Assembly: GCA_022729235.1 (NCBI GenBank)
Contig: JALDAJ010000001.1
Location: 824,442-888,441, forward strand
DNA: 64,000 nucleotides
Direction of reading: 5' to 3'
Origin: Candidatus Nanohalarchaeota archaeon
GTDB lineage: Archaea; Nanohalarchaeota; Nanosalinia; Nanosalinales; Nanosalinaceae
Both the position numbers and the translations under genes were made by a program. The notes below the pieces were generated by a model that was given only the letters and a program-made list of their open reading frames with translations, was not told the DNA's origin and searched no databases. Positions 9,071-39,386 of this stretch are shown in pieces; position 1 is the first letter of the stretch, and each line of letters begins with the position of its first letter.

Positions 9071-10336
9071 CTAGATTGGATTAATAGCAGAAACCTCAGG
9101 TATGTATATTAAGGCATCAAAGTTTTCTCTAAGTCTCAGTTTGTCGTAGTGATCTTCAATATTTTCAAGATGGAAATAAGTTCCTGCAGTATGGAGTCTG
9201 TGTTCTTGAGTTATCCATTCCTTCAGTCCTTCATTTGGTATGCCTGTAAAGTCTAGGAAGAATGGTTCTTGAATCTGATCTAGTTCTTGAGCTAGAGTGT
9301 CTTCGTGTAGTTTTTCAAATGATCTTTCTCCCTCCCAGTTAGGCTGTGGTTCTTCCATATCGAGGTATTTGAATGATCCTGTTCCGAAATCAAAGCCGAT
9401 GGCGTAATAGTCTTCCCCGTATTTCTGATCTAGATAGTATCCGAGTGCCTTTGATTCAGGGTTTTCAGGTTTCCCTCCTTTCTTGATGTGAGCGTTATGT
9501 GACCAGACAAATGCCTTTTCTTCATCTTCGAAATCCATCATCCAAGAAATATTTTCCGCCATACTTTGGTCACGGAAAGTCCAAGAATCTATATCAAGTT
9601 CAGCATTCTCATTTACGGCTAAACAGAACTTTCTACACTGCTCAAGTATCACTACTAACTGCTTCAATAAGTTGTATTCTTTCTCAGAAATAATTTCCAG
9701 ATACTCATCCTGCTTCTGCTTGACTTGATTCTCCAAATCTGTGATAAAGTCTTTGAGTTCCGCTTCTTTTTCTTTATCTATTTCTGCGAACATCATCTTT
9801 CCTTGCTCCATAAACTCCAGAGTCTCATTATTTGCTTCAATAAAGTCTCTGTCAACTTTCTGCATAATTTTCCGCAGCTTCTTGAAAGAAGCAATATCAT
9901 TCTGCATATCAAAGCCATAGAATCTGACTTTCTCCTCATCTGAAACCTGCTTATTATGTTCTCGAACCCATTCCACCAAGTTCAAAATTTCTTCTGTTCT
10001 GAATATAGGCGAGCTTATCGAACTCAGTGCTTCTTCAGCCGTTCCTTCTCCGTTAACAACATAGTTGTTGATTTCAAGCGTTTCTCCAAACGATGCTTCC
10101 CAAGCGAATATACGGTAGTCTAACTCTTCAACAAGAAATCGAAAGAATCTGCGTCTAACCTGATGAAACTCTTTAGTGGAGTGTGTAGCTTCGCCTATAC
10201 CAATGATTTTCCTGTTCTCAAGTGTTTCTTTCGGTATTTGGAAGTCTTCAAAAGGATTTTCTGAAGAAATCTTAAGCGGAGTTGAATAAGATTCTAACTG
10301 ATTTGATATATTCTCTTGAGAAGACATAGAACACAA
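9071..10336 (-). CDS. Erythromycin esterase-like protein
   Basis: A 421-residue protein with the erythromycin esterase/PF05139 pattern. It shows IIGIGEATHSTKEFHQVRRRFFRFLVEELDYRIFAWEASFGE near residues 44-86, NNYVVNGEGTAEEALSS, then TEEILNLVEWVREHNK, YGFDMQ, and WSHNAHIKKGG around 275. The GEATH and SHNAH histidines are the expected active-site residues. A coiled-coil insert spans about 170-215. Ere enzymes hydrolyse the macrolide lactone, but distant members act on other substrates. An alternative start at Met4 (10327) is possible. The promoter side holds the next AAGCCCC element. Confidence 0.82.
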   Translation of the reverse strand: MCSMSSQENISNQLESYSTPLKISSENPFEDFQIPKETLENRKIIGIGEATHSTKEFHQVRRRFFRFLVEELDYRIFAWEASFGETLEINNYVVNGEGTAEEALSSISSPIFRTEEILNLVEWVREHNKQVSDEEKVRFYGFDMQNDIASFKKLRKIMQKVDRDFIEANNETLEFMEQGKMMFAEIDKEKEAELKDFITDLENQVKQKQDEYLEIISEKEYNLLKQLVVILEQCRKFCLAVNENAELDIDSWTFRDQSMAENISWMMDFEDEEKAFVWSHNAHIKKGGKPENPESKALGYYLDQKYGEDYYAIGFDFGTGSFKYLDMEEPQPNWEGERSFEKLHEDTLAQELDQIQEPFFLDFTGIPNEGLKEWITQEHRLHTAGTYFHLENIEDHYDKLRLRENFDALIYIPEVSAINPI

Positions 10337-19343: not shown

Positions 19344-21110
19344 ATGAGTAAGGCGCAAAGTTTCCAAGAAGTTGTAACTAAACAAGTTAAATTCAAGATT
19401 CCTGAGTATCAGAGAAATTATTCCTGGACTGAGGAAGAGTTCCAAGACCTGTGGAGAGACCTAAACAACGTGATGGATAACAGAGAGGCGGAAGGAAACG
19501 GGAGAAACCATTTCTACGGGATGTTTCTCTTTGAAACTGAGGATAATGTTTACAAGATAATAGATGGACAGCAGAGAATCACTACGGCAATCATCTTCTT
19601 GAATGAAATCAAGAACAAGCTAGCTGAGCAAGGATACGATACCGAGGCTGAAAAGATAAAACAGGGCTACATAAAAGACATCAACGGCTACAAACTCCAG
19701 CTTGGAACAGATGAGGATGACCTTGTATTGAAGGACAATATACTAGGTAAGAAAGTTGTTGACAGGGATATAGAAGTAATATCTGACTCTCCTTCTCAGA
19801 ACAAGCTCTTGAGAGCCAAGAAGTTCTTCAGGGAAAAACTGGAGGACAAGGACAAAGAATACCTTCTAGACTTGAAGGAAGAGATAACTAAATTAGAAGT
19901 CCTTACGTATGAAGTAGAGTCTATTATCCGTGCAGTAAAGATTTTCGAAACCGCCAACGACAGAGGACGAGACCTTACAGTCCTGGACAAGACCAAGAGC
20001 TTCCTAATGCTACAAATCTATCTCAACAACCACGAAGGAGAAGAAACAGCAATAAAGGAAGAAATAAATCTTCTACAATCCAGATTCGGAGATATATACG
20101 GTAAAATTGAAGAGATTAATCAGGATAGCCACTGGGGAGACCTATCCGAAGACAACATTCAAAGATTCCACTACATTCTATGGGACACTGAATGGAGCTC
20201 AAGCAGAGGAGAAAGATACCACCAGAACCTGCTAGAAAACCTGAAGCAGAAAATCAGAGAAAGTGAAACGCCTTTAGAGGATATTGAAAATTATTCGAAG
20301 CAGTTAAAGACCGCTTTTGTGGCGCAGGAACAACTGACGAAGAAATCTGAGGATAGCAGAGAAAAGTACCTGATTAAACGGATGGAACTTATGGGAAGTA
20401 TGGGTAATATCAGACCCTTGCTACTGGCTCTGCGCCTCAAGAAAGATTCTCTAGGAGAAGACAACTATATCGAAATTCTAGAGCTAGTAGAGACACTAGC
20501 GGTCAGGATGTATTCAATTCTTCAAAGACCTGCCTACACTGCTAGATACAAGATATACAACCTGGCTAGAGATGTTTACCAGGAAAACGTTTCAGTAGAA
20601 GAAATCAAAGAAAAACTGATAGATATAATAGAGGATAAAGCAAGTGATGAAGCAGTAAGAGAAGCTCTTACAGAGGAATACGATGATTTCTACAAAGACT
20701 TTGGGAAACAGGAAATCAGGTTTTTACTCTACTTCTATGAAGAACACAAACAGACAGAGTCGGACAGACAGAAAATGCCTTTCAACTTGGAAGAATGGGT
20801 GAACGGAAAACTAGTCGGCGCAGACAAAGATACAAACATAGAAGTTGAACATATCCATCCACAGTCTCCGAACGAAGACCTAGACCTAGAGGAAGATAAA
20901 CACAGGCTCGGAAATCTTTCAATTCTACCTGAAGGAGAGAACAAATCACTTCAGAACGCAGTTCAAGCCGACAAAGAAGAAGCATACAAACACGTAAACC
21001 TAGATATGAATAAGGACATAGTTCCCGATTTAACTGACTGGGGCAAAGATACAATTGAGAACAGAGAAGAGGAGATAGTTAATCATATCTTGGAACGCTG
21101 GAGCTACTAA
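19344..21110 (+). CDS. GmrSD-like type IV restriction protein (DUF262 + DUF1524)
   Basis: A 588-residue protein with both halves of the GmrSD architecture. The N-terminal DUF262 domain has FKIPEYQRNYSWTEEEFQDLW (near 18-38) and the nucleotide-site motif IIDGQQRITTAI (near 72-83). The C-terminal DUF1524 domain has the HNH-like nuclease site VEHIHPQSPNEDLDL and HRLGNLSILPEGENKSLQNA (near 500-545). GmrSD enzymes cut glucosylated hydroxymethylcytosine DNA using NTP; close relatives have other targets. It heads a block of defence-like genes in the same direction. It could act alone or with the methyltransferase and helicase that follow. Confidence 0.85.
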   Translation: MSKAQSFQEVVTKQVKFKIPEYQRNYSWTEEEFQDLWRDLNNVMDNREAEGNGRNHFYGMFLFETEDNVYKIIDGQQRITTAIIFLNEIKNKLAEQGYDTEAEKIKQGYIKDINGYKLQLGTDEDDLVLKDNILGKKVVDRDIEVISDSPSQNKLLRAKKFFREKLEDKDKEYLLDLKEEITKLEVLTYEVESIIRAVKIFETANDRGRDLTVLDKTKSFLMLQIYLNNHEGEETAIKEEINLLQSRFGDIYGKIEEINQDSHWGDLSEDNIQRFHYILWDTEWSSSRGERYHQNLLENLKQKIRESETPLEDIENYSKQLKTAFVAQEQLTKKSEDSREKYLIKRMELMGSMGNIRPLLLALRLKKDSLGEDNYIEILELVETLAVRMYSILQRPAYTARYKIYNLARDVYQENVSVEEIKEKLIDIIEDKASDEAVREALTEEYDDFYKDFGKQEIRFLLYFYEEHKQTESDRQKMPFNLEEWVNGKLVGADKDTNIEVEHIHPQSPNEDLDLEEDKHRLGNLSILPEGENKSLQNAVQADKEEAYKHVNLDMNKDIVPDLTDWGKDTIENREEEIVNHILERWSY

Positions 21111-21158
21111 ATGACTTCACTGGAAAGAATTAAAACCAATTTTGTGTGATGTAGTATT

Positions 21159-24100
21159 ATGCCGTATTCGAAGATAACTTCTTCAGATATAGCGAATTGG
21201 GACTCTATAGATAAAATCGCTGAATCTCTAGAGAAAAGAGGCTTGGAGCGTGAAAAGAATCTTTCAGAACACGACGATGAAATTGTATTGAGAATAAATG
21301 ACGACGAATTTGTTGCTGTAGTGAAGGCAGAGGAAGGAAAGAAAGCATCGGATTATCGAACCAGAATGGACTCAGCAAGGCACACACAAGTTGTTTCTAC
21401 CACAGATTTCGAAAACTTTACTTTCACAAGCAGAAGACGTTCCTGGGATAAACACGGACGAATTCAATACCAGAAATTCTCCTTCAGCAAAGACCAGTTC
21501 ACAGGACGTGGAGAAAAAAGGTCAGTCCTAGAAAAACTCAACAATATAGAATATGGTGACTCTAGAACTATAGACCAGATTTACGAAACACAGAAAGTTG
21601 TCAAGAAATTCTACGACGAGTTCGAAGAAATTAAAGCTGAGATGGTCAGAAATGTAGAGAATATACCTGAAGACAGAGGAGATGCAAAACAAAATTACGC
21701 TCAGACTATTTTTGACCGACTGATTTTCCTTTACTTTATCCAAGAGAAAAAGCTTCTAGACTACAAGAAGGACTACCTCAGACGACATCACGAAAGAATT
21801 ACAGAAGAAGGTGAAGATGTATACGAGGAATTTTACGAACCATTATTCTTCAAACTGTTATCTGAAGGAGCAAAAGATACTGAGTTCGGAGAATTACCGT
21901 ACCTGAACGGAGGGCTTTTCAGCAAGACGAGAATCGAAGAAGAATTCCCAGAAGCAAGGCTTGGAAGCGGTGTGGAAGAAACCAACGAACTATTCGAAGA
22001 AATACTTGACTTCCTCGACAGTTGGAACTGGCACGCTGACGAAAGATTAGATATAGTAGACCCGAACAGAGTGAGTCCAGAACTTCTCGGGCATATTTTC
22101 GAGAAAACAGTCAATCAGAAAGAAATGGGGGCATACTACACGCCAGAAGAAATCACCCATTTTATGGCGAGAAACTCCATTCATCCATATATTATAGACA
22201 GGCTGAATGAGAAATTCGATACTAACTACGAAGAAATAGACGAAGTATTCAACTTAGACGAATATGAGGAAGACGAAGAAACTTACGAACACGATGAAAC
22301 GAGAATCGGAGAACTGGACGGAATAAACCGAGAAGAAGTAGAACATCTCTACTTCGAAGTTCTTGAAGACCTGAAGGTTCTCGACCCTGCAGTAGGTTCT
22401 GGAGCATTCCTGCTCGCAGCCCAAGAAGTCCTACTAGACGTATACCTTTCCTGCATCGAATATTTCCAGAAGCTCGACGAAGAACAGAAATGGGAGATGA
22501 CACCGCAAATAACGGAGTTTGTCCAGGAGCTAGAGGAAGGAACGCAGAGCGAATCGATGCACGCCAAGAGAGAAATTATTCTACAGAACCTCTACGGTGT
22601 CGATATTGACAGAGGGGCAACAGAAATCTGTAAGCTCCGACTATGGTTATCAATTGTCGCAGACCTCGAAGAAGGGAAAGACCCGACAGAAGTTGAAACT
22701 CTCCCGAACATCGATTTCAATATCAGACAAGGAAACAGTCTTGTCGGTTTTACACAGCCACTGGACAAAGCTCTTGACGGCGGCTCTAGTGGTCAGAACA
22801 CCCAGTCCAGCCTTCATCATTTTAATGAAGACTCCATAAAGGAGAAATACGAAGACATTATTGACGCAATTGAGAAGCATAAACGTGCAGATAGCAGTAA
22901 GGAGGCAGAAAAATATAGGAAAGATGCAGAAGAACTTCTTAGCAAATATAGAAGTGAACCTAACCAGAAGATAAAGAAGCAGTTTGAAAATGCGGGGGCA
23001 GAGGTTGATAAAGATACAATAGAAGACTTCTCTCCGTTCCACTGGGTTTTAGAATTCGCTGAGGTTTATTCTGAGGGCGGATTTGATGTAATTGTCGGAA
23101 ACCCGCCTTGGGAACAGCTTAAACCGCTGAGAGATGAGTATTTCGAACAGTTCGATGCTACATTTAGAGGTCTAAAACCTGATGAAAAGAAGGAGAGGAA
23201 GAAAGAGCTATTGGAAGACCCTGAAATCGAAGCGGGATGGGAAGAATACCAGAGAGAAATAGATATTCAATCCACCTACTTTAAGAAATCGGGCGTGTAT
23301 CAATTCCAGCAGCCAGTTGTAGATGGCAGGAAGCACGGGACGGAGAGAGAGCTAGCTGCTCTATTTTTGGAGAGAGTTTTCTCTTTAGCGGATGAAGAAG
23401 GTTATGTATCTCAAATTTTACCTGGAAAAATCTGGAATGGTAGTTCAGCGAAAGATTTGCGGATGCATTTGCTTAACGGAACGAACATCCGTTCTCTGGT
23501 AACGTTTGAAAATAAAGGAATATTCAGCGATATACATCCTCAATATAGATTTGGAGTAGTTGTGTTTGAGAACCAGGACGAGACTGAAGAATTAGAAGGT
23601 ATTTTCGGACAAACAGAAACTGATATTCTAGAGAGATTAGATGACGCTAGTGTCCAGATTCCAAAAGAAGTTCTGGCTAAATTTTCACCAGAAGCTCGCA
23701 CTTTCCCAACCATTAAGTCAGAAGAAGATGTCAAAGCTCTCAAGCCTATCTTAGATTATCCGCCTATAGGGGATGATATAGAGAATAAGTGGGTCGTGCA
23801 AAGCTATAGAGAACTAGACAGAACGAATGACTCAGATAGATTTGTTGAAAAAGAAAAAGGCGATTATCCAATATACAGCGGAGGCAACATCTTCCAGTTC
23901 TGTTACAAAGATGTAGATGGAATTAGTCTGGAAGACACTGAATTCTGGAGTGTTGATGAAGAAAAAGACCCTGAAGTGAGTGCAAAGAGAAGAATCAGAG
24001 AGAAGAACACCTTGGAGCTAAAGAAGCAACTATACCAGGCTTTCGATGGAAGTGGTTCTCAAAAGAAATTTGTTAATGAATTATTAGAAAAGAAAAGAGG

Positions 24101-24764
24101 TAGAAGTCTAGAGCTAGATGATGTGTTGCTCGACTGTAGGACTTTCAGAATTGCTTATAGGTATGTAGCCAGACAGACGGATGAACGCTCTATGATTGCT
24201 TCTGTTTTGCCCAAAGGAGTAGTTACCAGAAATCAAGCACCGACGGTCAGACCTTTCGAAATAAACCCTTCTAAGGATGACCTTGATTCTGAAGACCTGC
24301 ACAGTTGCTACGAGGAGATTTTCTCTACCGAAGAACTCTTTTACGCTGTAGGAATTATGAACAGTCTGCCTTTCGACTTCGTGATGCGAATGAAAGCTGA
24401 CGCCTCAATTCCTGCTTACAGACTTGAAGAAACTCAAGCACCTCGTCTGACCGAAGGCGACAAATGGTTTGAATTTATATGGGAGCGGGCTGCGAAGCTA
24501 AACGCTTATGATGAAGAATTCAAGGAAGTCCGAGAGGAACTTGATATTGAGGCTGTAAAAGAGGGAGAGAAAAGAAAAGAACTTCAGGCAGAGATTGATG
24601 CAGCAGCTTTCAAAGCCTATGGTGTGGAAGATAATGAGGCTAGGCACATACTCGATACTTTCCATAAGGTCAATAATCCTCGAATGATGGATGACGAGTA
24701 TTTTGATATGGTTTGGGACAAATATCAGGATTTAAAGGAGAAAAAGGAGGTAGTAGCTGAATAA
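21159..24764 (+). CDS. Large Eco57I-type adenine-N6 DNA methyltransferase
   Basis: A 1201-residue protein with an Eco57I/PglX-like core: AYYTPEEITHFMAR near 325, SAM motif I LDPAVGSGAFLLAAQ near 407, GVDIDRGATEICKLRLWLSIV near 480, and catalytic motif IV VGNPPW near 645. The N-terminal 300 residues carry an N-x-x-x-x-FDRLIFLYFIQEKKLL helix typical of these enzymes. The C-terminal 500 residues probably recognise the target sequence. Its stop overlaps the start of the helicase gene. Expected role: marks host DNA, or forms a restriction complex with the helicase. No proven nuclease domain is visible in it. Confidence 0.87.
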   Translation: MPYSKITSSDIANWDSIDKIAESLEKRGLEREKNLSEHDDEIVLRINDDEFVAVVKAEEGKKASDYRTRMDSARHTQVVSTTDFENFTFTSRRRSWDKHGRIQYQKFSFSKDQFTGRGEKRSVLEKLNNIEYGDSRTIDQIYETQKVVKKFYDEFEEIKAEMVRNVENIPEDRGDAKQNYAQTIFDRLIFLYFIQEKKLLDYKKDYLRRHHERITEEGEDVYEEFYEPLFFKLLSEGAKDTEFGELPYLNGGLFSKTRIEEEFPEARLGSGVEETNELFEEILDFLDSWNWHADERLDIVDPNRVSPELLGHIFEKTVNQKEMGAYYTPEEITHFMARNSIHPYIIDRLNEKFDTNYEEIDEVFNLDEYEEDEETYEHDETRIGELDGINREEVEHLYFEVLEDLKVLDPAVGSGAFLLAAQEVLLDVYLSCIEYFQKLDEEQKWEMTPQITEFVQELEEGTQSESMHAKREIILQNLYGVDIDRGATEICKLRLWLSIVADLEEGKDPTEVETLPNIDFNIRQGNSLVGFTQPLDKALDGGSSGQNTQSSLHHFNEDSIKEKYEDIIDAIEKHKRADSSKEAEKYRKDAEELLSKYRSEPNQKIKKQFENAGAEVDKDTIEDFSPFHWVLEFAEVYSEGGFDVIVGNPPWEQLKPLRDEYFEQFDATFRGLKPDEKKERKKELLEDPEIEAGWEEYQREIDIQSTYFKKSGVYQFQQPVVDGRKHGTERELAALFLERVFSLADEEGYVSQILPGKIWNGSSAKDLRMHLLNGTNIRSLVTFENKGIFSDIHPQYRFGVVVFENQDETEELEGIFGQTETDILERLDDASVQIPKEVLAKFSPEARTFPTIKSEEDVKALKPILDYPPIGDDIENKWVVQSYRELDRTNDSDRFVEKEKGDYPIYSGGNIFQFCYKDVDGISLEDTEFWSVDEEKDPEVSAKRRIREKNTLELKKQLYQAFDGSGSQKKFVNELLEKKRGRSLELDDVLLDCRTFRIAYRYVARQTDERSMIASVLPKGVVTRNQAPTVRPFEINPSKDDLDSEDLHSCYEEIFSTEELFYAVGIMNSLPFDFVMRMKADASIPAYRLEETQAPRLTEGDKWFEFIWERAAKLNAYDEEFKEVREELDIEAVKEGEKRKELQAEIDAAAFKAYGVEDNEARHILDTFHKVNNPRMMDDEYFDMVWDKYQDLKEKKEVVAE

Positions 24765-27700
24765 TGGTATTTCTTGACCCGATTATCGATAATCAGGAAC
24801 ATAGCTTGCGTGATACTTACAAGAAGCTTGTTAGAAGAAGTGAAGAAGTCCGAATTGCTACAGGTTACTTCTACTTGTCAGGCTTTAATCTGTATAAGGA
24901 AGACCTAGAAGAACTTGCTGACCCTGAAGAACTTGGAAAATCACCTATTCGAATCATAATGGGTAGGAAGACAGATAGAAGAACTGCTGATGAGCTTGAA
25001 GAAGGTTTTAATCTGCGTGAGCAGATGGAAGATGATATTCACGAAGATATTGAACAGCTTAACAACGCCCAGATGGATAGGTTAGAAAGACTCAAAGACT
25101 TCATCGCAGAAGGACTTGTAGATGTCAGAATCAGCAATCCTGATGGAGGAAGTTTCCACGCTAAAGGAGCTTCTTTCAGAGAGCCACTCACTGAAGGCGA
25201 GAAAAATGTAGAAGACCAGGACAGAAGACCTGTTTCCGTAATTGTAGGGTCATCGAACTTCTCAGAAACAGGACATACTAAAAATATCGAACTAAACCTC
25301 TCCTCTCAAGATGCTACGAAGGCAGCAGAGTTTGAAGGATGGTTCGACAACAGATGGGCGAACTCCGAAGAATTTAATCAGGAACTAATTGAGATAATAG
25401 AATCGAATCCAAAATATCAGGACTGGAAAGAAGACCAAGAAGAAACAGAGGGCGAAGAAAGTGAAGAACTCGAACTCGGAACATTTATCGAACCATTCGA
25501 ATACTACAAAATGCTGGCATACGACGCACTGGATGGCTATGTCAGCGACAGACACAACAGCCCACTATACCACTTCCAGCACAGAGGATACGAAAGTGCA
25601 AAAGCAAAGCTCGCCAAATATGACGGAGCAATTATCTCTGACAGTGTAGGACTTGGAAAGTCATTCATCGGAGCAGAAATTCTAAGGGACTACAGACACA
25701 ACGGACTCAACGCACTTCTAATCGTTCCAGCACACCTAACCAACCAGTGGGAAGAACTTCTGGAAGAAGCAACAGATGAAACAGGTAACAAATACTTCAA
25801 CCTTGAAGTCGATGACCGCCATCTTGAGGTAATGAGCATCACGAAGTTCCAGAACTTGGAATATGAAAGAGTTCAGGAACTTCGAGAACAGTTTGATGCA
25901 GTTCTTGTAGACGAGGCACACCGATTTAGGAACAGCGGTCGCTGGAAACCAGGAAAAGAAGATTACAAAGGAACTCGAAGATACGCCAACCTCAGAGAGT
26001 TCAAGGACAAGAAGATGATAATGTTGACAGCGACTCCTCTGAATAACAGTGCAGAGGACTTGAAGAATCTGATAAGCTTATTCACCAACGAGAAAGACCT
26101 AAGAAATATCGATGGTCTGGACTTCGATGCATTCGACGAATACATCAAGCTTGCTAGCAAGCGTAAGAAGATGATTAGGGAGGATGAGGTAGACCAGCAA
26201 GAGCTTCAGAAAATACTTGACCAACTTGCTGACAAAGCCGAAGAAATCGGAAATATTCTTGACAGTGTGATGGTTCTCAGAACGAGGAAACACGTCAAGG
26301 AGCAACTACGAGAGGAAGAAGACTTCGATATGAACTTCAAGCCTCCAGAAGTCCACAAGGAGAACTATACGCTTCCTGATGCGTATCAACCTGCATATGA
26401 AGTTCTTCCAGATATAATGAATGCTCTACACCTCCCGCATATTACAATCAGAAATCCGCAGGGAGGCAGCACCTTGAAGGCGCTCTACAAGTTGAACCTG
26501 CTGAAAAGACTGGAATCATCGCCATATGCATTCATAATGTCGCTTCAGACACTTTACGAGAGTGAAACCAAACTATTAGATATACTTGAGGACTTGCCAG
26601 AAGACGAAAAGGTCAGAGAACTTCAAGAGCTACAAGATGAAGATAAAGTCGTTCTCGAAGATTTCACGCAGAACGAGGAAACAGCAGAAGGACTCCAGTC
26701 AACACTTGAGGAACTTGGATTCGATGATTCTGTCGCCAGACAAGGCGATGATGTAGTTGACGACCTCGAAAAAGCAGAGGTCGGAGATGTCATCAAATTT
26801 ATCCGTGAAGACCTGGCGATGCTCTCTCACTTCGCATCACAGTTCGTTACAGGCATAGCTCCTCAGGACGAAGAACTCAACGACCTAAAACACACTACCG
26901 ATAACTGGCTGCGAGAGAAAGGACTCAATAAAATACCTGATGTTCCACCGACCAAATACGATGAAGTAGTCTACCCTGGCACTGACTTGGAGGATGCGGT
27001 CGAGGAGCTAGAACCATTCTATAACAGAATCTTCGACATCCAAGAGTTCAAGGACACGAAAGTAGACAGGTTAGCGAAGGTTCTGAACAAACAGGACGGT
27101 AAGACTATCATATTCACTCAGTATAGAGCCACAGCAGACTACATCTACGACCAATTGCTGGATTCCGATGAATCACCTATGACAAGAGAAAACAGTGCGG
27201 TCGTAAAGGGAGGTGACAAGAACAAGCAGGATGTTGTGAAAAGATTCTCACCAGGCTCTACTGGTTATCAGTCAACACTTGATGAAGAAGGAGAAAACGA
27301 GCTAGACTACGTGGTCGCAACTGACACACTTTCCGAAGGAGTCAATCTTCAAGATGTAAACACAGCAATAAACTACGACCTGCCTTGGAATCCGATGCGT
27401 ATCGTTCAGAGAGTCGGAAGAATCGACCGAATCGGAAGCACAGCCGACAAACACGTCCACAACTTCTTCCCAGACGAAGACCTAGAAACAGCCATCAAAC
27501 TACTGGAAAGACTCCAAGCAAAGATTGACGACATCGCACTGATTGTCGGAAAAGAAAACAACATACTCGACCCTAACGAAGACGAAGTCCTAGACCGCGC
27601 AGGAGTCGAAAAAGAGAAAACCATCGGAGAAATTGAACTCGAAGAAATACAAGAAAGCGTCCAAAAATCCAGAGAAGTAGAAGACATCAACGAATTAGAC

Positions 27701-28501
27701 GACACCAGTCAAAACGCGCTCCTACGTAGAACAGGCAAGGAAAGCGAGAAAGAAGCATTTAGACGTGTAAAGCTCAAGCAAGAACTTCAGGATAAATACG
27801 ACCTCGAAGAATCAGACTTCGAGTTCGCTGAAGACTACTTTGAAACACAGCCAGAAGACAGAGAACAACTATACACTGTCCTCAACGAAGACAATATTTC
27901 CGAAGCATCAGTCCTAGCCTTGATGCATATCTGGTACGAGAACTCAGATGCACCACTAAACCGTGCCGAGCGAGAAGTATATTACACAAGCTCTCACAAG
28001 GACGAGGTCAACACTATCAACAGCGTCCGCCAAATCAATATCAGTAAGTATGAAGATACAGAAAAGATTGACGAAGTTGATGAGACTCTGAAGAATGAGA
28101 TTGAATTAATCACAGAAAAGGTCGATGAAAGAACTGGTGAGGCAGAGAAATCTCAGGTAGAGGGAGCTTACAAGGAAGGCGGAAAGAAATCAAAACAACA
28201 GGAAATGGTTCTGGAATACCTTGAAAGAAAAATCATACCTGAAGAAGACCACTTAGAAGAACAGGCACAGGAAATACTTAACAGACTGAAACATCCTAAT
28301 CTGAAGAATACCGAGGAAGGCAGAGAGTTACGCAGCTTACTCGGCGACCAAGCCCTGACCGATTGGGATACTCAAGAACTACTAAACGAACTTCAGGGAT
28401 TTGTCGAGGAGTTCATCCAAGAATCACCTGAATACCAGTCAAAGCTAGCCAAGAAAAGCGAAGTCAACTCCGACACTCCCGTCTGGGCAGTAGTTCGCTG
28501 A
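24764..28501 (+). CDS. PLD-nuclease/SNF2-family helicase fusion
   Basis: A 1245-residue protein starting in the stop of the methyltransferase gene (TAATG). Residues 1-200 form a phospholipase D-like nuclease domain with one H-x-K (FHAKG, His132) and VGSSNFSETG near 161-170. From about 285 comes an SF2/SNF2 ATPase: Walker A SVGLGKS near 294-300, DEAH at 383-386, TATPLNNSAEDL near 423, and a C-terminal helicase half with FTQYRATADYIYDQLL and ATDTLSEGVNLQ plus QRVGRIDRIGS. A long acidic coiled tail follows. The pairing with an N6 methyltransferase resembles DISARM (drmD/drmMI) and related systems, but drmA, drmB and drmC are absent as such. Confidence 0.87.
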   Translation: MVFLDPIIDNQEHSLRDTYKKLVRRSEEVRIATGYFYLSGFNLYKEDLEELADPEELGKSPIRIIMGRKTDRRTADELEEGFNLREQMEDDIHEDIEQLNNAQMDRLERLKDFIAEGLVDVRISNPDGGSFHAKGASFREPLTEGEKNVEDQDRRPVSVIVGSSNFSETGHTKNIELNLSSQDATKAAEFEGWFDNRWANSEEFNQELIEIIESNPKYQDWKEDQEETEGEESEELELGTFIEPFEYYKMLAYDALDGYVSDRHNSPLYHFQHRGYESAKAKLAKYDGAIISDSVGLGKSFIGAEILRDYRHNGLNALLIVPAHLTNQWEELLEEATDETGNKYFNLEVDDRHLEVMSITKFQNLEYERVQELREQFDAVLVDEAHRFRNSGRWKPGKEDYKGTRRYANLREFKDKKMIMLTATPLNNSAEDLKNLISLFTNEKDLRNIDGLDFDAFDEYIKLASKRKKMIREDEVDQQELQKILDQLADKAEEIGNILDSVMVLRTRKHVKEQLREEEDFDMNFKPPEVHKENYTLPDAYQPAYEVLPDIMNALHLPHITIRNPQGGSTLKALYKLNLLKRLESSPYAFIMSLQTLYESETKLLDILEDLPEDEKVRELQELQDEDKVVLEDFTQNEETAEGLQSTLEELGFDDSVARQGDDVVDDLEKAEVGDVIKFIREDLAMLSHFASQFVTGIAPQDEELNDLKHTTDNWLREKGLNKIPDVPPTKYDEVVYPGTDLEDAVEELEPFYNRIFDIQEFKDTKVDRLAKVLNKQDGKTIIFTQYRATADYIYDQLLDSDESPMTRENSAVVKGGDKNKQDVVKRFSPGSTGYQSTLDEEGENELDYVVATDTLSEGVNLQDVNTAINYDLPWNPMRIVQRVGRIDRIGSTADKHVHNFFPDEDLETAIKLLERLQAKIDDIALIVGKENNILDPNEDEVLDRAGVEKEKTIGEIELEEIQESVQKSREVEDINELDDTSQNALLRRTGKESEKEAFRRVKLKQELQDKYDLEESDFEFAEDYFETQPEDREQLYTVLNEDNISEASVLALMHIWYENSDAPLNRAEREVYYTSSHKDEVNTINSVRQINISKYEDTEKIDEVDETLKNEIELITEKVDERTGEAEKSQVEGAYKEGGKKSKQQEMVLEYLERKIIPEEDHLEEQAQEILNRLKHPNLKNTEEGRELRSLLGDQALTDWDTQELLNELQGFVEEFIQESPEYQSKLAKKSEVNSDTPVWAVVR

Positions 28502-28543
28502 CACACAGATAAAAATAAATTTATAGGAGGCTCATCCAAGCTT

Positions 28544-28960
28544 ATGTCAGATTACAAAGGACTCGTGTTTCCTCTCTACAGAGATATTATAGAGAGAGCT
28601 GTTGAACAGGATAAAGATGTCTTTGTCAAATTCTCTAGAAGGCAAATAGATGAGGGAGAAGAACTCTATCTCTATGAAAGCGGTGAAAACGGCAGAAGAA
28701 AAATTGTAGCTAAAGCTATCGTAACTGGTTCTCAACATCTTAAGCCTTCAGAAGTCAAAGAAAACTACAGTGATAGAGTCTTCCAAACAGAGGAAGAATT
28801 AGAGGACTACATCCGAGGTAGAGGAAACAAAGAAATGCTCGTTATAGAGTTAGAAGACTTACAATATCTAGACCACCCAGTTGAAGCACCTGGTAATCTA
28901 ACAGTTGCGGGACTTTACCTCGACGATGAGAGATATGAGAAGCTAAAGAATAGTCTTTGA
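28544..28960 (+). CDS. DUF365 family protein
   Basis: A 138-residue protein with the DUF365 pattern: GLVFPLYRDIIERAVEQDKDVFVKF, LYLYESGENGRRKIVAKAIV, YSDRVFQTEEELEDYI, LVIELEDLQYLDHPVEAPGNLTVAGLYLDDERYEKL. The family is archaeal, and I take it to have a PUA/ASCH-like fold that may bind modified bases or RNA; that fold is inference. A GGAGG lies 13 bases upstream of the ATG. Its place directly after the methyltransferase-helicase pair suggests it could read modified DNA for the system. Confidence 0.72.
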   Translation: MSDYKGLVFPLYRDIIERAVEQDKDVFVKFSRRQIDEGEELYLYESGENGRRKIVAKAIVTGSQHLKPSEVKENYSDRVFQTEEELEDYIRGRGNKEMLVIELEDLQYLDHPVEAPGNLTVAGLYLDDERYEKLKNSL

Positions 28961-29012
28961 TTCTTGTTGTCTTTAGAAAACATTACAAGATTTTACATTA
29001 GAATTAATTGTT

Positions 29013-30086
29013 ATGGATGGCGGAAATCTCTGGTTCTATGATAATAGAAATGAAATACTAGGCATTTTACAGGATTTCAGCAACGAATATGGAAACTTTT
29101 ACGCCACATTATTTGTCAAAGAACCAGGAATTGACCTTATTGAACCTTTAACAATTCTGGAGAAGAGAAGCAGAGTGTTTGGTTTTGAGGAGAAAGAAAG
29201 CTCTGACCTAGAGATATTTGAATTAAATTTTGAGAATGGTGAAGCGGAAGAATGTCCAAACTGTGGAGAACTAATTCAAGAAGAAAGTAGTCCGAAGTTT
29301 CTGATGATAAGAGAAGATAATTTTGTCCTAGTGATATCAAACGCAAACAGTAAGGAATATGAGGCAAGAATAAACTATCTCAACGCTCTATACCCGACAC
29401 TTTCTCGAATATTCTTGCGTTCTGCGCAGATACAAGATATTCTAGATAGTAGCGAGGAACAGCTGGAGCAGGACTGGAAAGTGACTGAATTTGTAGCGAA
29501 AAGACGATATGGGCAGGAAGTAAGCGTCCAAGAATATCCCAAAGGCAATATAGGAGTTGAAGAAGCATATAGGAGAGCAGAAGAGCGAGATACCTGGATA
29601 GATAATATGCACGTTAATTCTCTTGATAAAAGAGTTCGTCTTAGGCGAGACGGTATAATTAATCTTTCTTTTACTAACGCCGAAGATATACTATCACTGG
29701 TATTTAACCAGATAAGAGAGGAAGTTAAAGAAGACTATGAAGTTCTTGCGTCAGAAGAAATCTTAGAACAAGAAGACGCAGCCATCGAACTCTCCCTAGA
29801 GCGAGATTACTTTACTGATATAGAAAGCTCTCAAGCTATTAAGAAAGAGCTAAACCAAGTTGAACAAGTGGACATTTTCCCATTAACGCAGGACAGTGAA
29901 CAACCTGAATATTACCTGAAGGACTACTCAACAGGCAGTGTAACAAAAATAATTGTAACAGGTCAAGACAAGCTGTTCATATCGCCTGAACTGTATCCTT
30001 CAGCGGTATCCATCTACAAAATCCTGACAAAAATATCCGACGTAGTAGAGGGTGAAATAAATGTCACAAAAACTCAGACGGTATAA
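29013..30086 (+). CDS. Uncharacterised protein of the defence-like block
   Basis: A 357-residue soluble protein starting MDGGNLWFYDNRNEILGILQDF. It has a CPNC pair (EECPNCGELIQEES, near 78) with no second pair, a helix-rich middle and a strand-rich C-terminus (SVTKIIVTGQDKLFISPELYPSA). No family recognised. Its last 26 bases overlap the next gene, so the two are probably made together. Confidence 0.55.
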   Translation: MDGGNLWFYDNRNEILGILQDFSNEYGNFYATLFVKEPGIDLIEPLTILEKRSRVFGFEEKESSDLEIFELNFENGEAEECPNCGELIQEESSPKFLMIREDNFVLVISNANSKEYEARINYLNALYPTLSRIFLRSAQIQDILDSSEEQLEQDWKVTEFVAKRRYGQEVSVQEYPKGNIGVEEAYRRAEERDTWIDNMHVNSLDKRVRLRRDGIINLSFTNAEDILSLVFNQIREEVKEDYEVLASEEILEQEDAAIELSLERDYFTDIESSQAIKKELNQVEQVDIFPLTQDSEQPEYYLKDYSTGSVTKIIVTGQDKLFISPELYPSAVSIYKILTKISDVVEGEINVTKTQTV

Positions 30087-31176
30087 AGACAGAATCAACG
30101 ACTATAGAGCCTCAGTATATGCCTCAGTCTTCCTCCGAAATCTGATTGAGGAAGAATGGAATCTAAACTACACCTTCCACTTTGGAGGCAACATAGATGG
30201 CTCTAGAAATGACTCTCCAGACTTTGTCCTTGAATCAGAGAATCAAGAAAACAGGGATATTTTGGGTGACCTAAAGAAAAGTATCTGTAGAAAAGACCTT
30301 TCTGACGATGCCACGCCAAGCGACCTAGTTAAAGAGCACGGAGAAGATAAGCTCTTGAACGAGATTTGTGGAGACCTAGAAAAAGATGCGGATAAATACT
30401 CTGATTCCTTCGACCATATTTCCGACCCGCACGACTTATTTTTCTTCTACAGGAACAAATACAACCGAATTCCAAGAGTCTGGAATAAAGTGTCAGAACT
30501 CCCTGAAGAAAGACAAGTAGCAGGTATTTCCTACGAAGTTACCCAAGGCAGGCAGAAGTCACTTCAGATAGACCTTGACTTCGGTGGATTCTCGAATGAT
30601 AAACTTAATGATAAGATAGAGTTCAGCAATACCGAGTTTGTCTACGAAAAAATACCTGAGATAATTCTAGAAGATGAAATAGTAATAGTGGAAGAAAACG
30701 ACTCCGCACCACTCGGTTACTTGATATTTGTTCTATGGACTGTAGTATTCGATAAATTAGAAAGCAAAGAGAAAGATGAATTGATACTGGACAGATTTGA
30801 GAGGGAGAAAACAGGCGAAATCACTGAGATGAAGGTTGACCTAGAAGAACTTATTGACCTACTCAACGAAGAATACAAGCTACCTTTCTTTGAAACACAT
30901 CCTTCAGGAGGTACAAGACACCAGTTCTCTGACAAACAAGTAGAAGAAGCACTAGATGCGATGGCAGCTATGGATAACTTAGGTGTCGAGAAAATTGATG
31001 GAGAAAGAATCACTTACCGCATAGAATACGGCGTGATTTCTAAAGGAAAACAAGACGCACTAGAAACAATAATTGAATATATGCAGGAAGAAGGAATTGG
31101 ACAGTTCGAATCAGAAGATGAAGGACAAACTGCAGTAGTTCAGAAAGGACTTTCTAAGTTTGAGGGAGAAAAATGA
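30061..31176 (+). CDS. Uncharacterised protein with possible PD-(D/E)xK nuclease motif
   Basis: A 371-residue protein. Near 55-75 it reads NDSPDFVLESENQENRDILGDLKKS: a PD, a spacer of about 16 residues and D-x-K after a hydrophobic strand, preceded by a helix (ASVYASVFLRNLIEEEW). This is the layout of a PD-(D/E)xK nuclease core, though not proof. The C-terminal 120 residues look like a winged-helix region (VDLEELIDLLNEEYKLPFFETHPSGG ... ISKGKQDALETIIEYMQEEG). It overlaps both neighbours, so it is part of a tight three-gene unit. Confidence 0.55.
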   Translation: MSQKLRRYKDRINDYRASVYASVFLRNLIEEEWNLNYTFHFGGNIDGSRNDSPDFVLESENQENRDILGDLKKSICRKDLSDDATPSDLVKEHGEDKLLNEICGDLEKDADKYSDSFDHISDPHDLFFFYRNKYNRIPRVWNKVSELPEERQVAGISYEVTQGRQKSLQIDLDFGGFSNDKLNDKIEFSNTEFVYEKIPEIILEDEIVIVEENDSAPLGYLIFVLWTVVFDKLESKEKDELILDRFEREKTGEITEMKVDLEELIDLLNEEYKLPFFETHPSGGTRHQFSDKQVEEALDAMAAMDNLGVEKIDGERITYRIEYGVISKGKQDALETIIEYMQEEGIGQFESEDEGQTAVVQKGLSKFEGEK

Positions 31177-31460
31177 ATTACTGTCCTTATTGCGGTGAAG
31201 AACTTATAGAAGACGCTTCTTTCTGTCAGGAATGCGGTAGTAACATTAAGAAACAGTCCGCCAATTCTGAGGAAAAAACTAACATCCTACAAACGGAAGA
31301 AGAGATAAAGCAGGCGGCTAGAGATGCGGTTGAGAAATACGATATGACCAGAGAACATATCACAGAGGAAATGATTATGCATTATTTCTTGATGCAGCAA
31401 ATCATACAGAAAGAAGCAGAGGAAGAAGTAGAAAAAGAACTCAATACGGATTTAGGTTAA
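31173..31460 (+). CDS. Small zinc-ribbon protein, 95 residues
   Basis: An N-terminal double CxxC ribbon (MNYCPYCGEELIEDASFCQECG) is followed by a helical Glu-rich tail that looks coiled-coil (EEEIKQAARDAVEKYDMTREH ... QQIIQKEAEEEVEKEL). It starts in an ATGA overlap with the putative nuclease gene, so it is probably the third subunit of that unit. Its last nine bases overlap the end of the convergent histone gene. Confidence 0.6.
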   Translation: MNYCPYCGEELIEDASFCQECGSNIKKQSANSEEKTNILQTEEEIKQAARDAVEKYDMTREHITEEMIMHYFLMQQIIQKEAEEEVEKELNTDLG

Positions 31461-31652
31461 GGCTCGCTTCAAGTGTTCTTGCTTTACAGTCTCATAGTCT
31501 TCTTCCTGAGCAACTGCTATTGCTTCTTCAGCTACATCCCCTGCAAATCTTTCCAATATCTCGATTAGCTCTTTAGATGCATCTTTGCTGACACGCTTGT
31601 TACCTTGTTTCTTAATAATTCGTTTCCCTGCAGATATAGAGAATTCTGACAT
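31452..31652 (-). CDS. Archaeal histone-fold protein encoded in the element
   Basis: From the ATG at 31652 the product is 66 residues: MSEFSISAGKRIIKKQGNKR, then VSKDASKELIEILERFAGDVAEEAIAVAQ and a last helix after ETVKQEHLKRAL. The order helix 1, RVS-type loop, long helix 2, TVK-type loop, helix 3 matches archaeal histones. The usual RKT before V is replaced by DYET, so DNA contacts may differ. The frame is open 34 codons further up, but that part is not histone-like. It sits beside the NurA-HerA group and could compact or mask element DNA. Confidence 0.75.
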   Translation of the reverse strand: MSEFSISAGKRIIKKQGNKRVSKDASKELIEILERFAGDVAEEAIAVAQEEDYETVKQEHLKRALT

Positions 31653-31780
31653 ATTTATTAGCTCTAAATCTGGTTTTTTATAGACTTTGTTAAGTAAAAA
31701 TGTCAATTGATAGAGGTTTCTTGAATTAGAAATAGGTTTAACTTTTTCACCCAAATTACCTTTTCAGAGGTTAATGTAGA

Positions 31781-34551: not shown

Positions 34552-35313
34552 ATGAAAATTAACTTGTTTGGAGTTAGTCACGTAGCTCAGAAAAGTGAAA
34601 TGCAGGAACAGCTAGAGGATTATATTGAAGATAAAGAGCTTGACGCAATTTTTATTGAAAGACTGGATGAAGAGCCTGGTATTAAGGAAAAGTTGAAGGC
34701 ATCTTTGATGAATCCGTCTCTTATGCTTTTCAAGTATCTATACAAGCACATAGGAGATTTACTGGTTTTCCTCAAGAATCTAACTAGGAGACGAGAGATA
34801 AACTGGACTAGAGATGACGGACGAATAGCTAAAGAACTCAGTAATGAGTTAAATATTCCATTATATAATGTTGATAAGTCGATTGAAAAATCTATACTTG
34901 ATGAAGGCTGGATTTGGACAGCATTAAGCTGGACAGTCTTTCTAGCCCTCTCAGCACAGATATTCCAGTTCGGCTACCTAATATTTGTAGGAGAATTTTA
35001 CAGTATACTTGGTCTAGGCGCAGAAATCTTCGGACTAATAGCCTCCCTGTTTTTCGCAGTATCAATCCTAATCGCATTTCCATTCATAATAGCCGAAGTA
35101 GACTCCAGAAACATCTATATGCTGAACAACTTACAGGAAATATCCGAAGAAAATGATTACGAAAATGTATTGATGATAACTGGTAGAAAACACGTAGAAG
35201 GGTTTGAAACACTGATACAAATGACACCAGATAGTTGCAGTTCAGAGAATTATACAAGGAAATCGTTAAGACAAAGGATTCAGAGTAGAGTAGGAGGTAT
35301 TGCTAGTAGATGA
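34552..35313 (+). CDS. TraB/PrgY-like membrane protein
   Basis: A 253-residue protein. The N-terminal GVSHVAQKSEMQEQLEDYI (residues 6-24) and the late MITGRKHVEGF (near 220) correspond to the GxxHV and GxxH motifs of the TraB/Tiki superfamily. The early part also has AIFIERLDEEPG, where the family's conserved E-R/L lies. Two strong membrane helices (about 120-145 and 155-185) divide the motifs. The family contains putative metalloproteases and pheromone-shutdown proteins. It begins three bases after the herA stop, so it may be co-expressed. Substrate unknown. Confidence 0.65.
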   Translation: MKINLFGVSHVAQKSEMQEQLEDYIEDKELDAIFIERLDEEPGIKEKLKASLMNPSLMLFKYLYKHIGDLLVFLKNLTRRREINWTRDDGRIAKELSNELNIPLYNVDKSIEKSILDEGWIWTALSWTVFLALSAQIFQFGYLIFVGEFYSILGLGAEIFGLIASLFFAVSILIAFPFIIAEVDSRNIYMLNNLQEISEENDYENVLMITGRKHVEGFETLIQMTPDSCSSENYTRKSLRQRIQSRVGGIASR

Positions 35314-35573
35314 ATTCAGAAATGGATTACTGCCCTAGCTGTGGCGGGGATGTGTTAGATGAAGCAAGTTACTGTCATTCTTGTGGGGAGAAACTTGAAG
35401 ATTTTAACACAGACTCCCACGACAGCAGTAGTGAGGAGAAGGAAGATGACCAAGAGAATGAGAAATTGAAGGAATTGGAAAGTCTTCTTCAAGAGAACCC
35501 TGAATTGTATGATACCTTGACAAATATCGAGCAAAGGATAATAGACGCACTTGGAGTTAATCCAAATAACTAA
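35310..35573 (+). CDS. Small zinc-ribbon protein, 87 residues
   Basis: N-terminal MDYCPSCGGDVLDEASYCHSCG is a double CxxC ribbon closely like the one at 31173, followed by an acidic Ser/Glu linker and a helix (LKELESLLQENPELYDTL). It is coupled to the TraB-like gene by an ATGA overlap. Both ribbons follow the same pattern (ribbon, then charged helix), so they may be adaptors for neighbouring proteins. Confidence 0.6.
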   Translation: MNSEMDYCPSCGGDVLDEASYCHSCGEKLEDFNTDSHDSSSEEKEDDQENEKLKELESLLQENPELYDTLTNIEQRIIDALGVNPNN

Positions 35574-38000: not shown

Positions 38001-39386
38001 CTAGATTTTGCCTGCGCCTCCCTGTAGACCTTTCTGATTTTTCTCGATGACTACTACTTCTTGTTCGGTCTTGTTTCTTGCTATTTTGTCGGTGAGTGCG
38101 TGTCCGCAGGTGCAGAGGTCTCTGGTCGGTGGGTGGATTGTCTCGCAGTTCCCGCATTTCTTCCTGTCAAGCGCTTTCAGGTCTCTGTCGTCTTCTGGTT
38201 CGATTCCTTGTGCGAGAAGCCTGTCTCTCCCTTCTATCTTGTCAGGTTCTAATGTGTAATCTCTGACTTGTTGAAGGTCGCTCCACCCTCCTCTGTCAGC
38301 TACTTCGCCTATATCCCAGTCTGCAATTTTGCGGTAATACGTTACCATCGAAAAACGGTATGCGTGAGGGTTATGGCGTTTATCTAGGTTGATATTGTCT
38401 GCTAGTCTTTCCAGGGCTTTGGATATGCTTCTTCTGGACATTTGGTCTCCTCTATCCTTTGCTTTCTCTCCGTCTGGCGTGTATGAGTCTTGGAGGACGC
38501 AGAAGATGTAGGCTTCTGGGTTATCGCTTCGAGGGTGGTATTCCAGCCATTCACGGAGAAGATGTGTGCAACGTGTTAAATGGTTCTCTCTTTTTGGGCG
38601 CAGACTCTTGTTTTTCTGACTGTTCAGAGTTAGTGTGGTGTGTGTATCGTGTCTGGTTACGTCCTTTATCTGGAGTGTTCTGATTTCCTCCAAACGAGCC
38701 CCTGTACAGTAGAATAGGAGTGGTAGGAGGGCATCTCTCCTGTTTTTTGCGGATTTCGCCATTGCCATTACTTCGTCTGGGAAGATGAAGTCGTAAATCC
38801 TCTTCAGTTCTTTCTTCCCTGGGTGGGAGGTGTTCGTGACCTCTGAGTCGAGGATGTTCCAGATACGGGGTGGTCTGTCTCTTGGAGGGAACATCGTCTT
38901 GTAGAACTTCTGGAGGCAGACACGTCTATCCCGCTTTGTGGTTGCGGAGACATCTTGCTGGTCTATTGCGTCAGCAAGTTTTCCTATGTCTTCCAGTGTT
39001 GCTTCTAAAAGCTTGAAATCGGTGTGTGGTAGAATTTGTCCGAACTGTGACAGGTATTTCTCAAGCCTGTAGTCGCTGATTTGGTCGTCTCGGACAGAGT
39101 TGAGTTCGTGTATGAACTCTTCTACTGCTTCTCCGTTTTCAGGGGAGACGTAGTCTTTGTCTAGAAGGTTTTGAAGTCGTCTTTGGATGTGTGGTGACAG
39201 AGTTGAATCTGTCGTTTTGTCTGTGTTGTCGTCTTCGTTGTGTTCTGGTTTCATTTCAAAGGGTTCACCTGATGTTTGAGTGAACCCTTCGGGTCGGTCG
39301 GGGTTTCCCCGCCCGTTCACCTGTTCGAGGAGTTGCCTCCTCTTATCTTTGTATTCCCGTTCCGTTATGGCTTGGGAATCCTTCAC
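38001..39386 (-). CDS. int: Tyrosine integrase of the element, with C-terminal zinc ribbon
   Basis: A 461-residue frame, or 416 from the Met at 39251. The N-terminal core-binding domain spans about 80-170. The catalytic domain has Arg in CTGARLEEIRTLQIKDV (near 228), H-x-x-R in HAYRFSMVTYYRK (near 347) and Tyr in VRDYTLEPDK, with the second His position replaced in DRGGWSDLQQ. A C4 ribbon (KKCGNCETIHPP ... CTCGHAL) lies near 415. It starts within 80-215 bases of the tRNA-Thr 3' end, so it probably integrates there. The first 45 codons cover two perfect hairpins and may be non-coding. Confidence 0.82.
   Translation of the reverse strand: MKDSQAITEREYKDKRRQLLEQVNGRGNPDRPEGFTQTSGEPFEMKPEHNEDDNTDKTTDSTLSPHIQRRLQNLLDKDYVSPENGEAVEEFIHELNSVRDDQISDYRLEKYLSQFGQILPHTDFKLLEATLEDIGKLADAIDQQDVSATTKRDRRVCLQKFYKTMFPPRDRPPRIWNILDSEVTNTSHPGKKELKRIYDFIFPDEVMAMAKSAKNRRDALLPLLFYCTGARLEEIRTLQIKDVTRHDTHTTLTLNSQKNKSLRPKRENHLTRCTHLLREWLEYHPRSDNPEAYIFCVLQDSYTPDGEKAKDRGDQMSRRSISKALERLADNINLDKRHNPHAYRFSMVTYYRKIADWDIGEVADRGGWSDLQQVRDYTLEPDKIEGRDRLLAQGIEPEDDRDLKALDRKKCGNCETIHPPTRDLCTCGHALTDKIARNKTEQEVVVIEKNQKGLQGGAGKI
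39259..39311. promoter_or_regulatory. Two perfect hairpins at the 5' end of the integrase frame
   Basis: AAGGGTTCAC (39259-39268) pairs with GTGAACCCTT (39280-39289), and CGGGG-TTT-CCCCG lies at 39299-39311. Their words (AAGGGTTC, CCCCG, ACCCGAAGGGTT on the minus strand) echo the AAGCCCC elements at the left end. They could be integrase arm-binding sites, with translation starting at the Met at 39251. Confidence 0.4.

What the first reader, a model, noticed from the sequence alone, without database searches (positions are those of the whole stretch)
19344..31460. Defence-like block linking GmrSD-like, methyltransferase, PLD-SNF2 helicase and an unknown gene set
Seen: seven same-direction genes, several overlapping (24764, 30061, 31173). 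The methyltransferase and PLD-SNF2 pair are coupled by TAATG. Known: DISARM and related systems combine SNF2 helicases, PLD proteins and methyltransferases; GmrSD acts alone. Inference: a system that may combine restriction of modified DNA with a methylation-guided helicase-nuclease. The usual drmA/drmB are absent, so it does not equal DISARM.
Basis: partly seen in the sequence, partly recalled or inferred. Interest (0 to 1): 0.8.

Follow-up and report, generated by a model that had tools for sequence, protein, structure and literature searches.

The report
Two-gene methylase–helicase-nuclease defence module
A tiny salt-loving archaeon carries, on an acquired DNA island, a methylase paired with a helicase-nuclease that in relatives travel together as one restriction-modification-like unit whose target can be switched by DNA inversion, while the other five genes of the proposed 'system' are neighbours that are linked more loosely or not at all.

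Summary
All seven genes and the overlaps are real. They are not one conserved system.

The core is a pair: an Eco57I/PglX-like adenine methylase (21159-24764) and a PLD(HKD)-SNF2 helicase-nuclease (24764-28501). Both match the same 20 haloarchaeal plasmids. In 34 further genome loci the methylase lies beside every full-length helicase but one, which is on a 7.5-kb contig. More distant pairs occur in Thermococcus, other archaea, lactobacilli and cyanobacteria.

DISARM/ARMADA YprA and the DUF499 ATPase are absent from the genome; no PglZ or BrxC appears in the block. The pair is therefore best read as a two-subunit, ATP-dependent RM-like module.

In at least eight haloarchaeal loci the methylase's N-terminal half lies between inverted repeats, two opposed C-terminal halves and a tyrosine recombinase: a specificity switch. 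Helicase distances track the methylase N-half (r=0.95) but not its target-recognition region (r=0.12). This implies the methylase carries the target and the helicase-nuclease follows it.

GmrSD (19344) is an intact type IV candidate, enriched near such pairs (3/34 loci) but not conserved. DUF365 (28544) recurs beside PLD-SNF2 in three other archaeal loci, and also beside BREX and type III RM. Genes 29013-31460 have no detectable relatives.

New variant of a known kind. Defence function untested.

The parts
19344..21110 (+). GmrSD-type (DUF262/GmrSD_N + GmrSD_C) putative type IV modification-dependent endonuclease, 588 aa; optional neighbour of the pair
   Evidence: Pfam PF03235 3.6e-31 and PF07510 2.4e-16; DGQQR and EHIHP motifs read in the protein; PADLOC HEC-06/Orf5; DUF262 in 3/34 haloarchaeal pair loci against 0.083 expected
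21159..24764 (+). Eco57I/PglX-like N6-adenine DNA methyltransferase, 1201 aa; motif I DPAVGSG (409-415), motif IV NPPW (648-651); inferred specificity subunit
   Evidence: PF07669 5.7e-28; closest solved relatives CamA and BrxX; about 49-54% identical full-length homologues paired with the helicase in 20 haloarchaeal plasmids
24762..24766 (+). TAATG: stop/start overlap coupling methyltransferase and helicase-nuclease
   Evidence: sequence
24764..28501 (+). PLD (HKD)-SNF2/RapA-like helicase-nuclease, 1245 aa; HxK(132-134)...GSSN...E176, Walker A K299, DEAH 383-386, motif VI 882-889; inferred restriction motor/nuclease
   Evidence: PF13091, PF00176, PF00271; PADLOC HKD+Snf2 1e-76 over residues 7-1173; invariant catalytic columns in archaea and bacteria
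28544..28960 (+). DUF365 protein, 138 aa (possible EVE/PUA-like base-reader accessory)
   Evidence: PF04033 30.9 bits against cut-off 25.9; relative of PDB 2kku, 1.5e-8; DUF365 also directly next to PLD-SNF2 in Thermococcus profundus, G162 and G136
29013..30086 (+). Unknown protein, 357 aa, no relatives found; membership not supported
   Evidence: no hits
30061..31176 (+). Unknown protein, 371 aa, with a PD-x(n)-DLK stretch (SPDFVLESENQENRDILGDLKKS) that could be a PD-(D/E)XK motif; unproven
   Evidence: motif by eye; no hits; single-sequence model uninformative, pLDDT 34
31173..31460 (+). Small zinc-ribbon protein, 95 aa; a similar short zinc-ribbon ORF lies at 35310-35573
   Evidence: PF13240 1.7e-7

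Best explanation
P0002 and P0003 form a two-subunit, ATP-dependent restriction-modification-like system that works in the manner of a type III or type ISP enzyme. The methyltransferase recognises an unmodified site with its C-terminal target-recognition part and methylates adenine on host DNA. Its N-terminal half docks the PLD-SNF2 protein, which translocates on DNA lacking the mark and cuts it with its HKD nuclease domain. GmrSD (P0001) next to it is an independent type IV enzyme that could catch modified DNA which the first module cannot. DUF365 (P0004) is a possible reader of modified bases that assists methylation-based systems. P0005-P0007 are unassigned. Shown: the pairing, intact catalytic residues, absence of other DISARM/ARMADA/BR cores from the genome, co-divergence with the methylase N-half, and invertible C-halves in relatives. 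Inferred: complex formation, methylation-blocked cleavage, antiviral or anti-plasmid function, and the roles of P0001 and P0004.
For: Both genes match the same 20 haloarchaeal plasmid records at full length, about 50-55% identical. The methylase lies in every one of 34 genome loci that holds a full-length helicase except one 7.5-kb contig; two loci match only a helicase fragment. In 46 other archaeal genomes 8 of 11 strong PLD-SNF2 genes have a methylase within 5 kb, the other three being truncated reading frames. The pair occurs in tandem, convergent or reversed order, so linkage is not mere operon inheritance. Helicase distances correlate with methylase N-half distances (r=0.95, Mantel p=0.0002) but not with the 701-1000 region (r=0.12). 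In relatives the C-half is switched by inversion while the helicase stays fixed. That would be lethal unless the nuclease takes its specificity from the methylase. The methylase N-domain lacks an ExK nuclease motif, leaving the invariant PLD site as the only evident nuclease.
Against: No biochemical or virus-resistance data. The type III analogy rests on logic, not homology: the helicase is SNF2/RapA-like. Defence genes cluster in islands and plasmids anyway. The fold of the methylase N-domain was not resolved (pLDDT 61.6, no credible Foldseek match), so a degenerate or unusual nuclease there is not excluded. The window's own copy has no inversion apparatus.
Confidence: 0.7

Rival explanations
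1. All seven genes are one composite defence system combining type IV restriction with methylation-guided helicase-nuclease.
For: Compact co-directional block with short gaps. One archaeal locus, L101, has methylase, DUF365 and PLD-SNF2 on one strand and EVE, DUF262 and DUF365 on the other. DUF262 is enriched near pairs, 3 observed against 0.083 expected.
Against: P0001 matches no haloarchaeal pair locus; DUF262 in 3/34 only. P0005 and P0006 have no relatives. Gaps with TATA-like stretches suggest separate units.
Confidence: 0.12
2. The pair is a stripped DISARM class I/ARMADA (DrmMI + DrmD) remnant that needs a YprA helicase encoded elsewhere.
For: Weaker similarity to DrmMI and DrmD models; ARMADA and DISARM share a PglX-like methylase plus a BrxHII/RapA-like helicase (PMC12458937).
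Against: YprA/MZB is absent from the whole genome and from 8 of 11 pair-bearing plasmid records; the three records with a match have it elsewhere, at least about 16 kb away. The PLD nuclease is fused to the helicase, and the PADLOC HKD+Snf2 model fits far better than DrmD (1e-76 against 1e-30).
Confidence: 0.08
3. P0002 is a stand-alone type IIG enzyme and P0003 an unrelated helicase; proximity reflects defence-island clustering.
For: PADLOC labels P0002 REase_MTase_IIG first; islands cluster such genes.
Against: Near-universal adjacency in several gene orders, distance correlation 0.95, and no ExK motif in the N-domain.
Confidence: 0.1

Closest known systems
Type 2 BREX-related (BR) systems: HKD-SNF2 helicase + methylase + DUF499 ATPase + DUF3780 (PMC12839542); also the archaeal COG1743-DUF499-SNF2/PLD-EVE operon (PMC7641849)
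   Same: HKD/PLD nuclease at the N-terminus of a RapA-like SNF2 helicase, encoded with an adenine methylase; EVE-like accessories in archaea
   Different: No DUF499 in the window's genome. The methylase is Eco57I/PglX-like with no DUF1156-type hit. EVE is replaced by DUF365.
DISARM class I / ARMADA
   Same: PglX-like methylase plus RapA-like helicase pair
   Different: No YprA/DrmA, no DrmB hit; PLD fused to the helicase rather than a separate DrmC
Type III and type ISP restriction-modification
   Same: Working logic: a specificity-carrying methylase plus an ATP-driven helicase-nuclease
   Different: SNF2 motor with HKD nuclease in place of the ResIII helicase with PD-(D/E)XK endonuclease seen in L085
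GmrSD / DUF262 type IV restriction (P0001 only)
   Same: Both GmrSD domains and motifs present
   Different: 28-33% identical to haloarchaeal plasmid homologues; substrate unknown
Phase-variable hsdS inversion systems (e.g. Streptococcus pneumoniae, PMC4948785)
   Same: Recombinase-driven inversion changes methylase specificity
   Different: In the haloarchaeal relatives the shared N-terminal half of a single-chain methylase sits between the repeats and can join either of two C-halves; not present in the window's own copy

Membership tests
DISARM | drmA (YprA/DUF1998 MZB helicase) | tested here: not met
   PF09369 absent from the whole genome; the control rang in 8 of 14 genomes
DISARM | drmB and drmC | tested here: not met
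   No DrmB or DrmC model among the PADLOC matches listed for the block and its downstream neighbours; not searched genome-wide
[quoted passage not shown]
BREX | PglZ and BrxC | tested here: not met
   No PglZ or BrxC hit among 20 proteins of the island; not searched genome-wide
BREX-related (DUF499) systems | DUF499 ATPase | tested here: not met
   PF04465 absent from the genome
Type IIG RM | Nuclease domain in the methylase chain | tested here: inconclusive
   No ExK conserved in N-terminal alignment A5; AF2 N-domain model weak and without a credible match
Two-component ATP-dependent RM (works like type III/ISP) | Methylase and helicase-nuclease inseparable and co-evolving | tested here: met
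Two-component ATP-dependent RM (works like type III/ISP) | Cleavage of unmethylated DNA, blocked by methylation | not testable with these tools
   needs biochemistry
GmrSD type IV restriction (P0001) | GmrSD_N (DUF262) and GmrSD_C domains with DGQQR and HNH-like motifs | tested here: met
GmrSD type IV restriction (P0001) | Cleaves glucosylated or otherwise modified DNA | not testable with these tools
   needs an assay
DUF365 (P0004) | Pfam PF04033 above gathering cut-off | tested here: met
   30.9 against 25.9 bits
EVE/PUA base readers (P0004) | Homology to the EVE domain | tested here: inconclusive
   EVE E=0.094 in Pfam; hhalign probability 35% over 51 columns

The most novel reading that the evidence does not exclude
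A widespread but apparently undescribed archaeal two-gene RM class: a PglX-like methylase whose C-half is the sole, evolutionarily swappable and in haloarchaea invertible specificity determinant, commanding a constant PLD-SNF2 helicase-nuclease, with DUF365 as an interchangeable modified-base reader that also serves BREX and type III systems.
Probability: 0.3. Interest if true: 0.72.

Novelty: new variant of a known kind. Interest (0 to 1): 0.5.

Why it matters
It separates a real, conserved two-gene core from neighbours that only looked like parts of it. The core is simpler than DISARM, ARMADA, BREX or BR systems that share its halves, so it is a tractable test of how PglX-like methylases direct SNF2 helicases, an open question for those larger systems. 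The invertible methylase in haloarchaeal relatives, if confirmed, would be an archaeal specificity switch in which one flip re-targets modification and restriction together. The window would place such a unit in a 1-Mb, probably symbiotic archaeon, where imported restriction genes may affect exchange with its host.

Tried and rejected
Genome-contig scan with P0003 alone and viral scans with P0002, P0006, P0005 and alignment A3: no relatives; the genome scan succeeded with an alignment. Searches for P0006 and P0005 relatives in plasmids, for P0006 in 28 same-phylum genomes and 394 genomes of the haloarchaeal phylum, in PDB, Pfam, NCBIfam, PADLOC and PHROGs: none. P0006 as a PD-(D/E)XK nuclease: only a motif by eye; the single-sequence AF2 model is useless, so not claimed. 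P0002 N-domain fold: no credible Foldseek match. Att-type direct repeats bounding the island: none found. Rfam elements and tRNAs: none. DUF365-EVE homology: suggestive only. DUF365 as a specific partner of the pair was softened after finding it next to BREX-1 PglX/PglZ and type III Res and next to EVE in most archaeal loci. Literature searches for an invertible PglX or an Eco57I/PLD-SNF2 pair returned nothing directly on point; absence from an open-access library is weak evidence of novelty.

Full report
The observation. Same-strand order is not itself informative: the strand is nearly constant from 13.4 to 35.6 kb, and the block is limited only by two small minus-strand genes. Gaps of 42-52 nt before 21159, 28544 and 29013, with fully A/T octamers about 30 nt upstream of 19344, 21159 and 28544, allow four transcription units rather than one. 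The block lies in a low-GC stretch (about 0.39-0.44 from 6 to 37 kb against 0.45-0.52 outside) that also encodes an MCM helicase, an integrase and a HerA-like ATPase, so an acquired element is likely. The genome is one 1.03-Mb contig, and neither P0003 (cut-off 1e-20) nor P0006 is found in 27 other genomes of its phylum.

What the proteins are. P0001: GmrSD_N plus GmrSD_C with DGQQR and EHIHP. P0002: an Eco57I-family adenine methylase with DPAVGSG and NPPW; its profile's closest solved structures are CamA and BrxX. P0003: a PLD domain with HxK...GSSN...E followed by a complete SNF2/RapA-like helicase; the PADLOC HKD+Snf2 model covers residues 7-1173 at 1e-76, far better than DrmD at 1e-30. P0004: DUF365 above Pfam's cut-off, related to the Archaeoglobus-type structure 2kku (the source organism is from memory). 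P0005 and P0006: nothing. P0007: a zinc ribbon.

Which genes belong together. tblastn of P0002 and P0003 against 72,556 plasmids gave full-length, roughly 50-55% identical hits in the same 20 haloarchaeal records, in tandem, convergent, or separated by a gene or two. A profile scan of about 85,000 species genomes gave 34 loci; every one with a full-length helicase has the methylase except L026, a 7.5-kb contig; L050 and L051 match only a helicase fragment. Beyond haloarchaea, adjacent methylase and PLD-SNF2 genes occur in Natrinema, Natronococcus, Thermococcus profundus, two lactobacilli, Lactobacillus kefiranofaciens and Picosynechococcus. Among 46 archaeal genomes chosen because they have DUF365, 8 of 11 strong PLD-SNF2 genes have the methylase within 5 kb, the other three being truncated frames. 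The pair is therefore the conserved unit.

The other neighbours. P0001 hits none of the haloarchaeal pair loci at E<=1e-3. A broader DUF262 profile finds one in 3 of 34 genome loci against 0.083 expected from the genomes' own DUF262 density (Poisson 9e-5, two of the three loci being near-identical). DUF262 also flanks the pair in L008 and L014. So it is an enriched but optional companion. The only plasmid with a P0004 relative is that of T. profundus, where it directly follows the PLD-SNF2 gene. In the 46 DUF365-bearing genomes, two DUF365 genes lie within 1 kb of a PLD-SNF2 gene (expected 0.03) and five within 12 kb (expected 0.17). One of these loci, L101, carries methylase, DUF365 and PLD-SNF2 on one strand and EVE, DUF262 and DUF365 on the other, the nearest thing to the window's toolkit. 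However, the closest relatives of P0004 sit between a PglX-like gene and dGTPase/PglZ (L086) or after a type III Res gene (L085), and EVE lies near most other DUF365 genes. DUF365 therefore looks like an accessory of methylation-based systems generally. P0005-P0007 have no support as members.

A specificity switch in relatives. In L003, L019, L020, L021, L024, L041, L046 and L047 a second methylase C-terminal half (residues about 430/480-1195) lies in opposite orientation, and a tyrosine recombinase follows the distal half. Inverted repeats with exact cores of 54-56 nt (L003, L019-L021), 46 plus 34 nt (L046), 80 nt (L047) and 29 plus 25 nt (L024, L041) flank the shared promoter-side and N-terminal segment. 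None of 20 loci with a full methylase but no opposed half has the recombinase. In Halobaculum saliterrae two loci are in opposite orientation: N-halves 97% identical, expressed C-halves 52% identical, and each one's open, stop-free silent half matches the other's expressed half at 97% and 93%. Contigs L018 and L043 end exactly at the repeat end and L049 within two bases of it, as expected if populations are mixed, although a short repeat alone could also break assemblies. Over 24 loci, helicase distance tracks methylase residues 1-430 (r=0.95, Mantel p=0.0002) but not residues 701-1000 (r=0.12, p=0.06); that region is also the most variable.

Mechanism. A nuclease with its own fixed target would destroy the cell each time the methylase changed specificity. 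The constant helicase-nuclease must therefore be directed by the methylase, as in type III, type ISP or BREX-like logic: the methylase reads the site, an unmethylated site licenses the SNF2 motor, and the PLD domain cuts. The methylase N-half is the likely docking surface; its sequence shows no ExK motif, but the fold was not resolved. Shown: linkage, motifs, co-divergence, inversion geometry. Inferred: complex, cleavage rule, defence. GmrSD would add an independent type IV arm against modified DNA.

Comparison with known systems. DISARM and ARMADA need a YprA helicase, absent from the genome (definitions from PMC12458937). BREX-related systems need DUF499, absent (PMC12839542), though their Type 2 has the same HKD-SNF2 fusion. 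PMC7641849 predicted an archaeal COG1743-DUF499-SNF2/PLD-EVE operon, the nearest published prediction. No PglZ or BrxC was found among island proteins. The pair shares parts with all of these and meets the definition of none, so it is a new variant of a known kind.

Phylogeny. P0003 falls at the base of the haloarchaeal branch rather than inside it (basal node support weak at 0.53), so it is not a recent copy of any sampled haloarchaeal gene.

Noticed in passing
L003 15816-22633; L019 13831-20750; L020, L021, L024, L041, L046, L047: Invertible methylase cassette in haloarchaeal relatives: the N-terminal half lies between inverted repeats, two opposed C-terminal halves and a tyrosine recombinase.
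   Followed up: yes
L018, L043, L049 (contig ends): Independent haloarchaeal draft assemblies break at (L018, L043) or within two bases of (L049) the inverted-repeat end, consistent with mixed orientations in the culture.
   Followed up: partly
L086 7348-14047: A DUF365 gene related to P0004 sits between the C-terminal part of a PglX-like gene and dGTPase plus PglZ genes of a BREX locus.
   Followed up: partly
L054-L122 (most loci): DUF365 and EVE genes are repeatedly close together in archaeal genomes, often within a few hundred bases; function unknown.
   Followed up: partly
window 6000-37000: Low-GC island with MCM (13388), tyrosine integrase (16126), HerA-like ATPase (32935) and a second integrase at its edge (38001-39386); looks like an integrated plasmid or virus-like element. 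No flanking repeats found.
   Followed up: partly
window 31452-31754 (-): Small gene that looks like an archaeal histone fold (by eye) between the block and the HerA-like gene.
   Followed up: no
window 9071-10336 (-): Erythromycin-esterase family protein (PF05139, 1.7e-61) inside the island.
   Followed up: no
L101 2172-2612 and L085 8140-8973: Small proteins with D-x-D...(I/L)IELKR stretches (possible PD-(D/E)XK nucleases) next to DUF365; no Pfam match above cut-off and no PADLOC match.
   Followed up: partly
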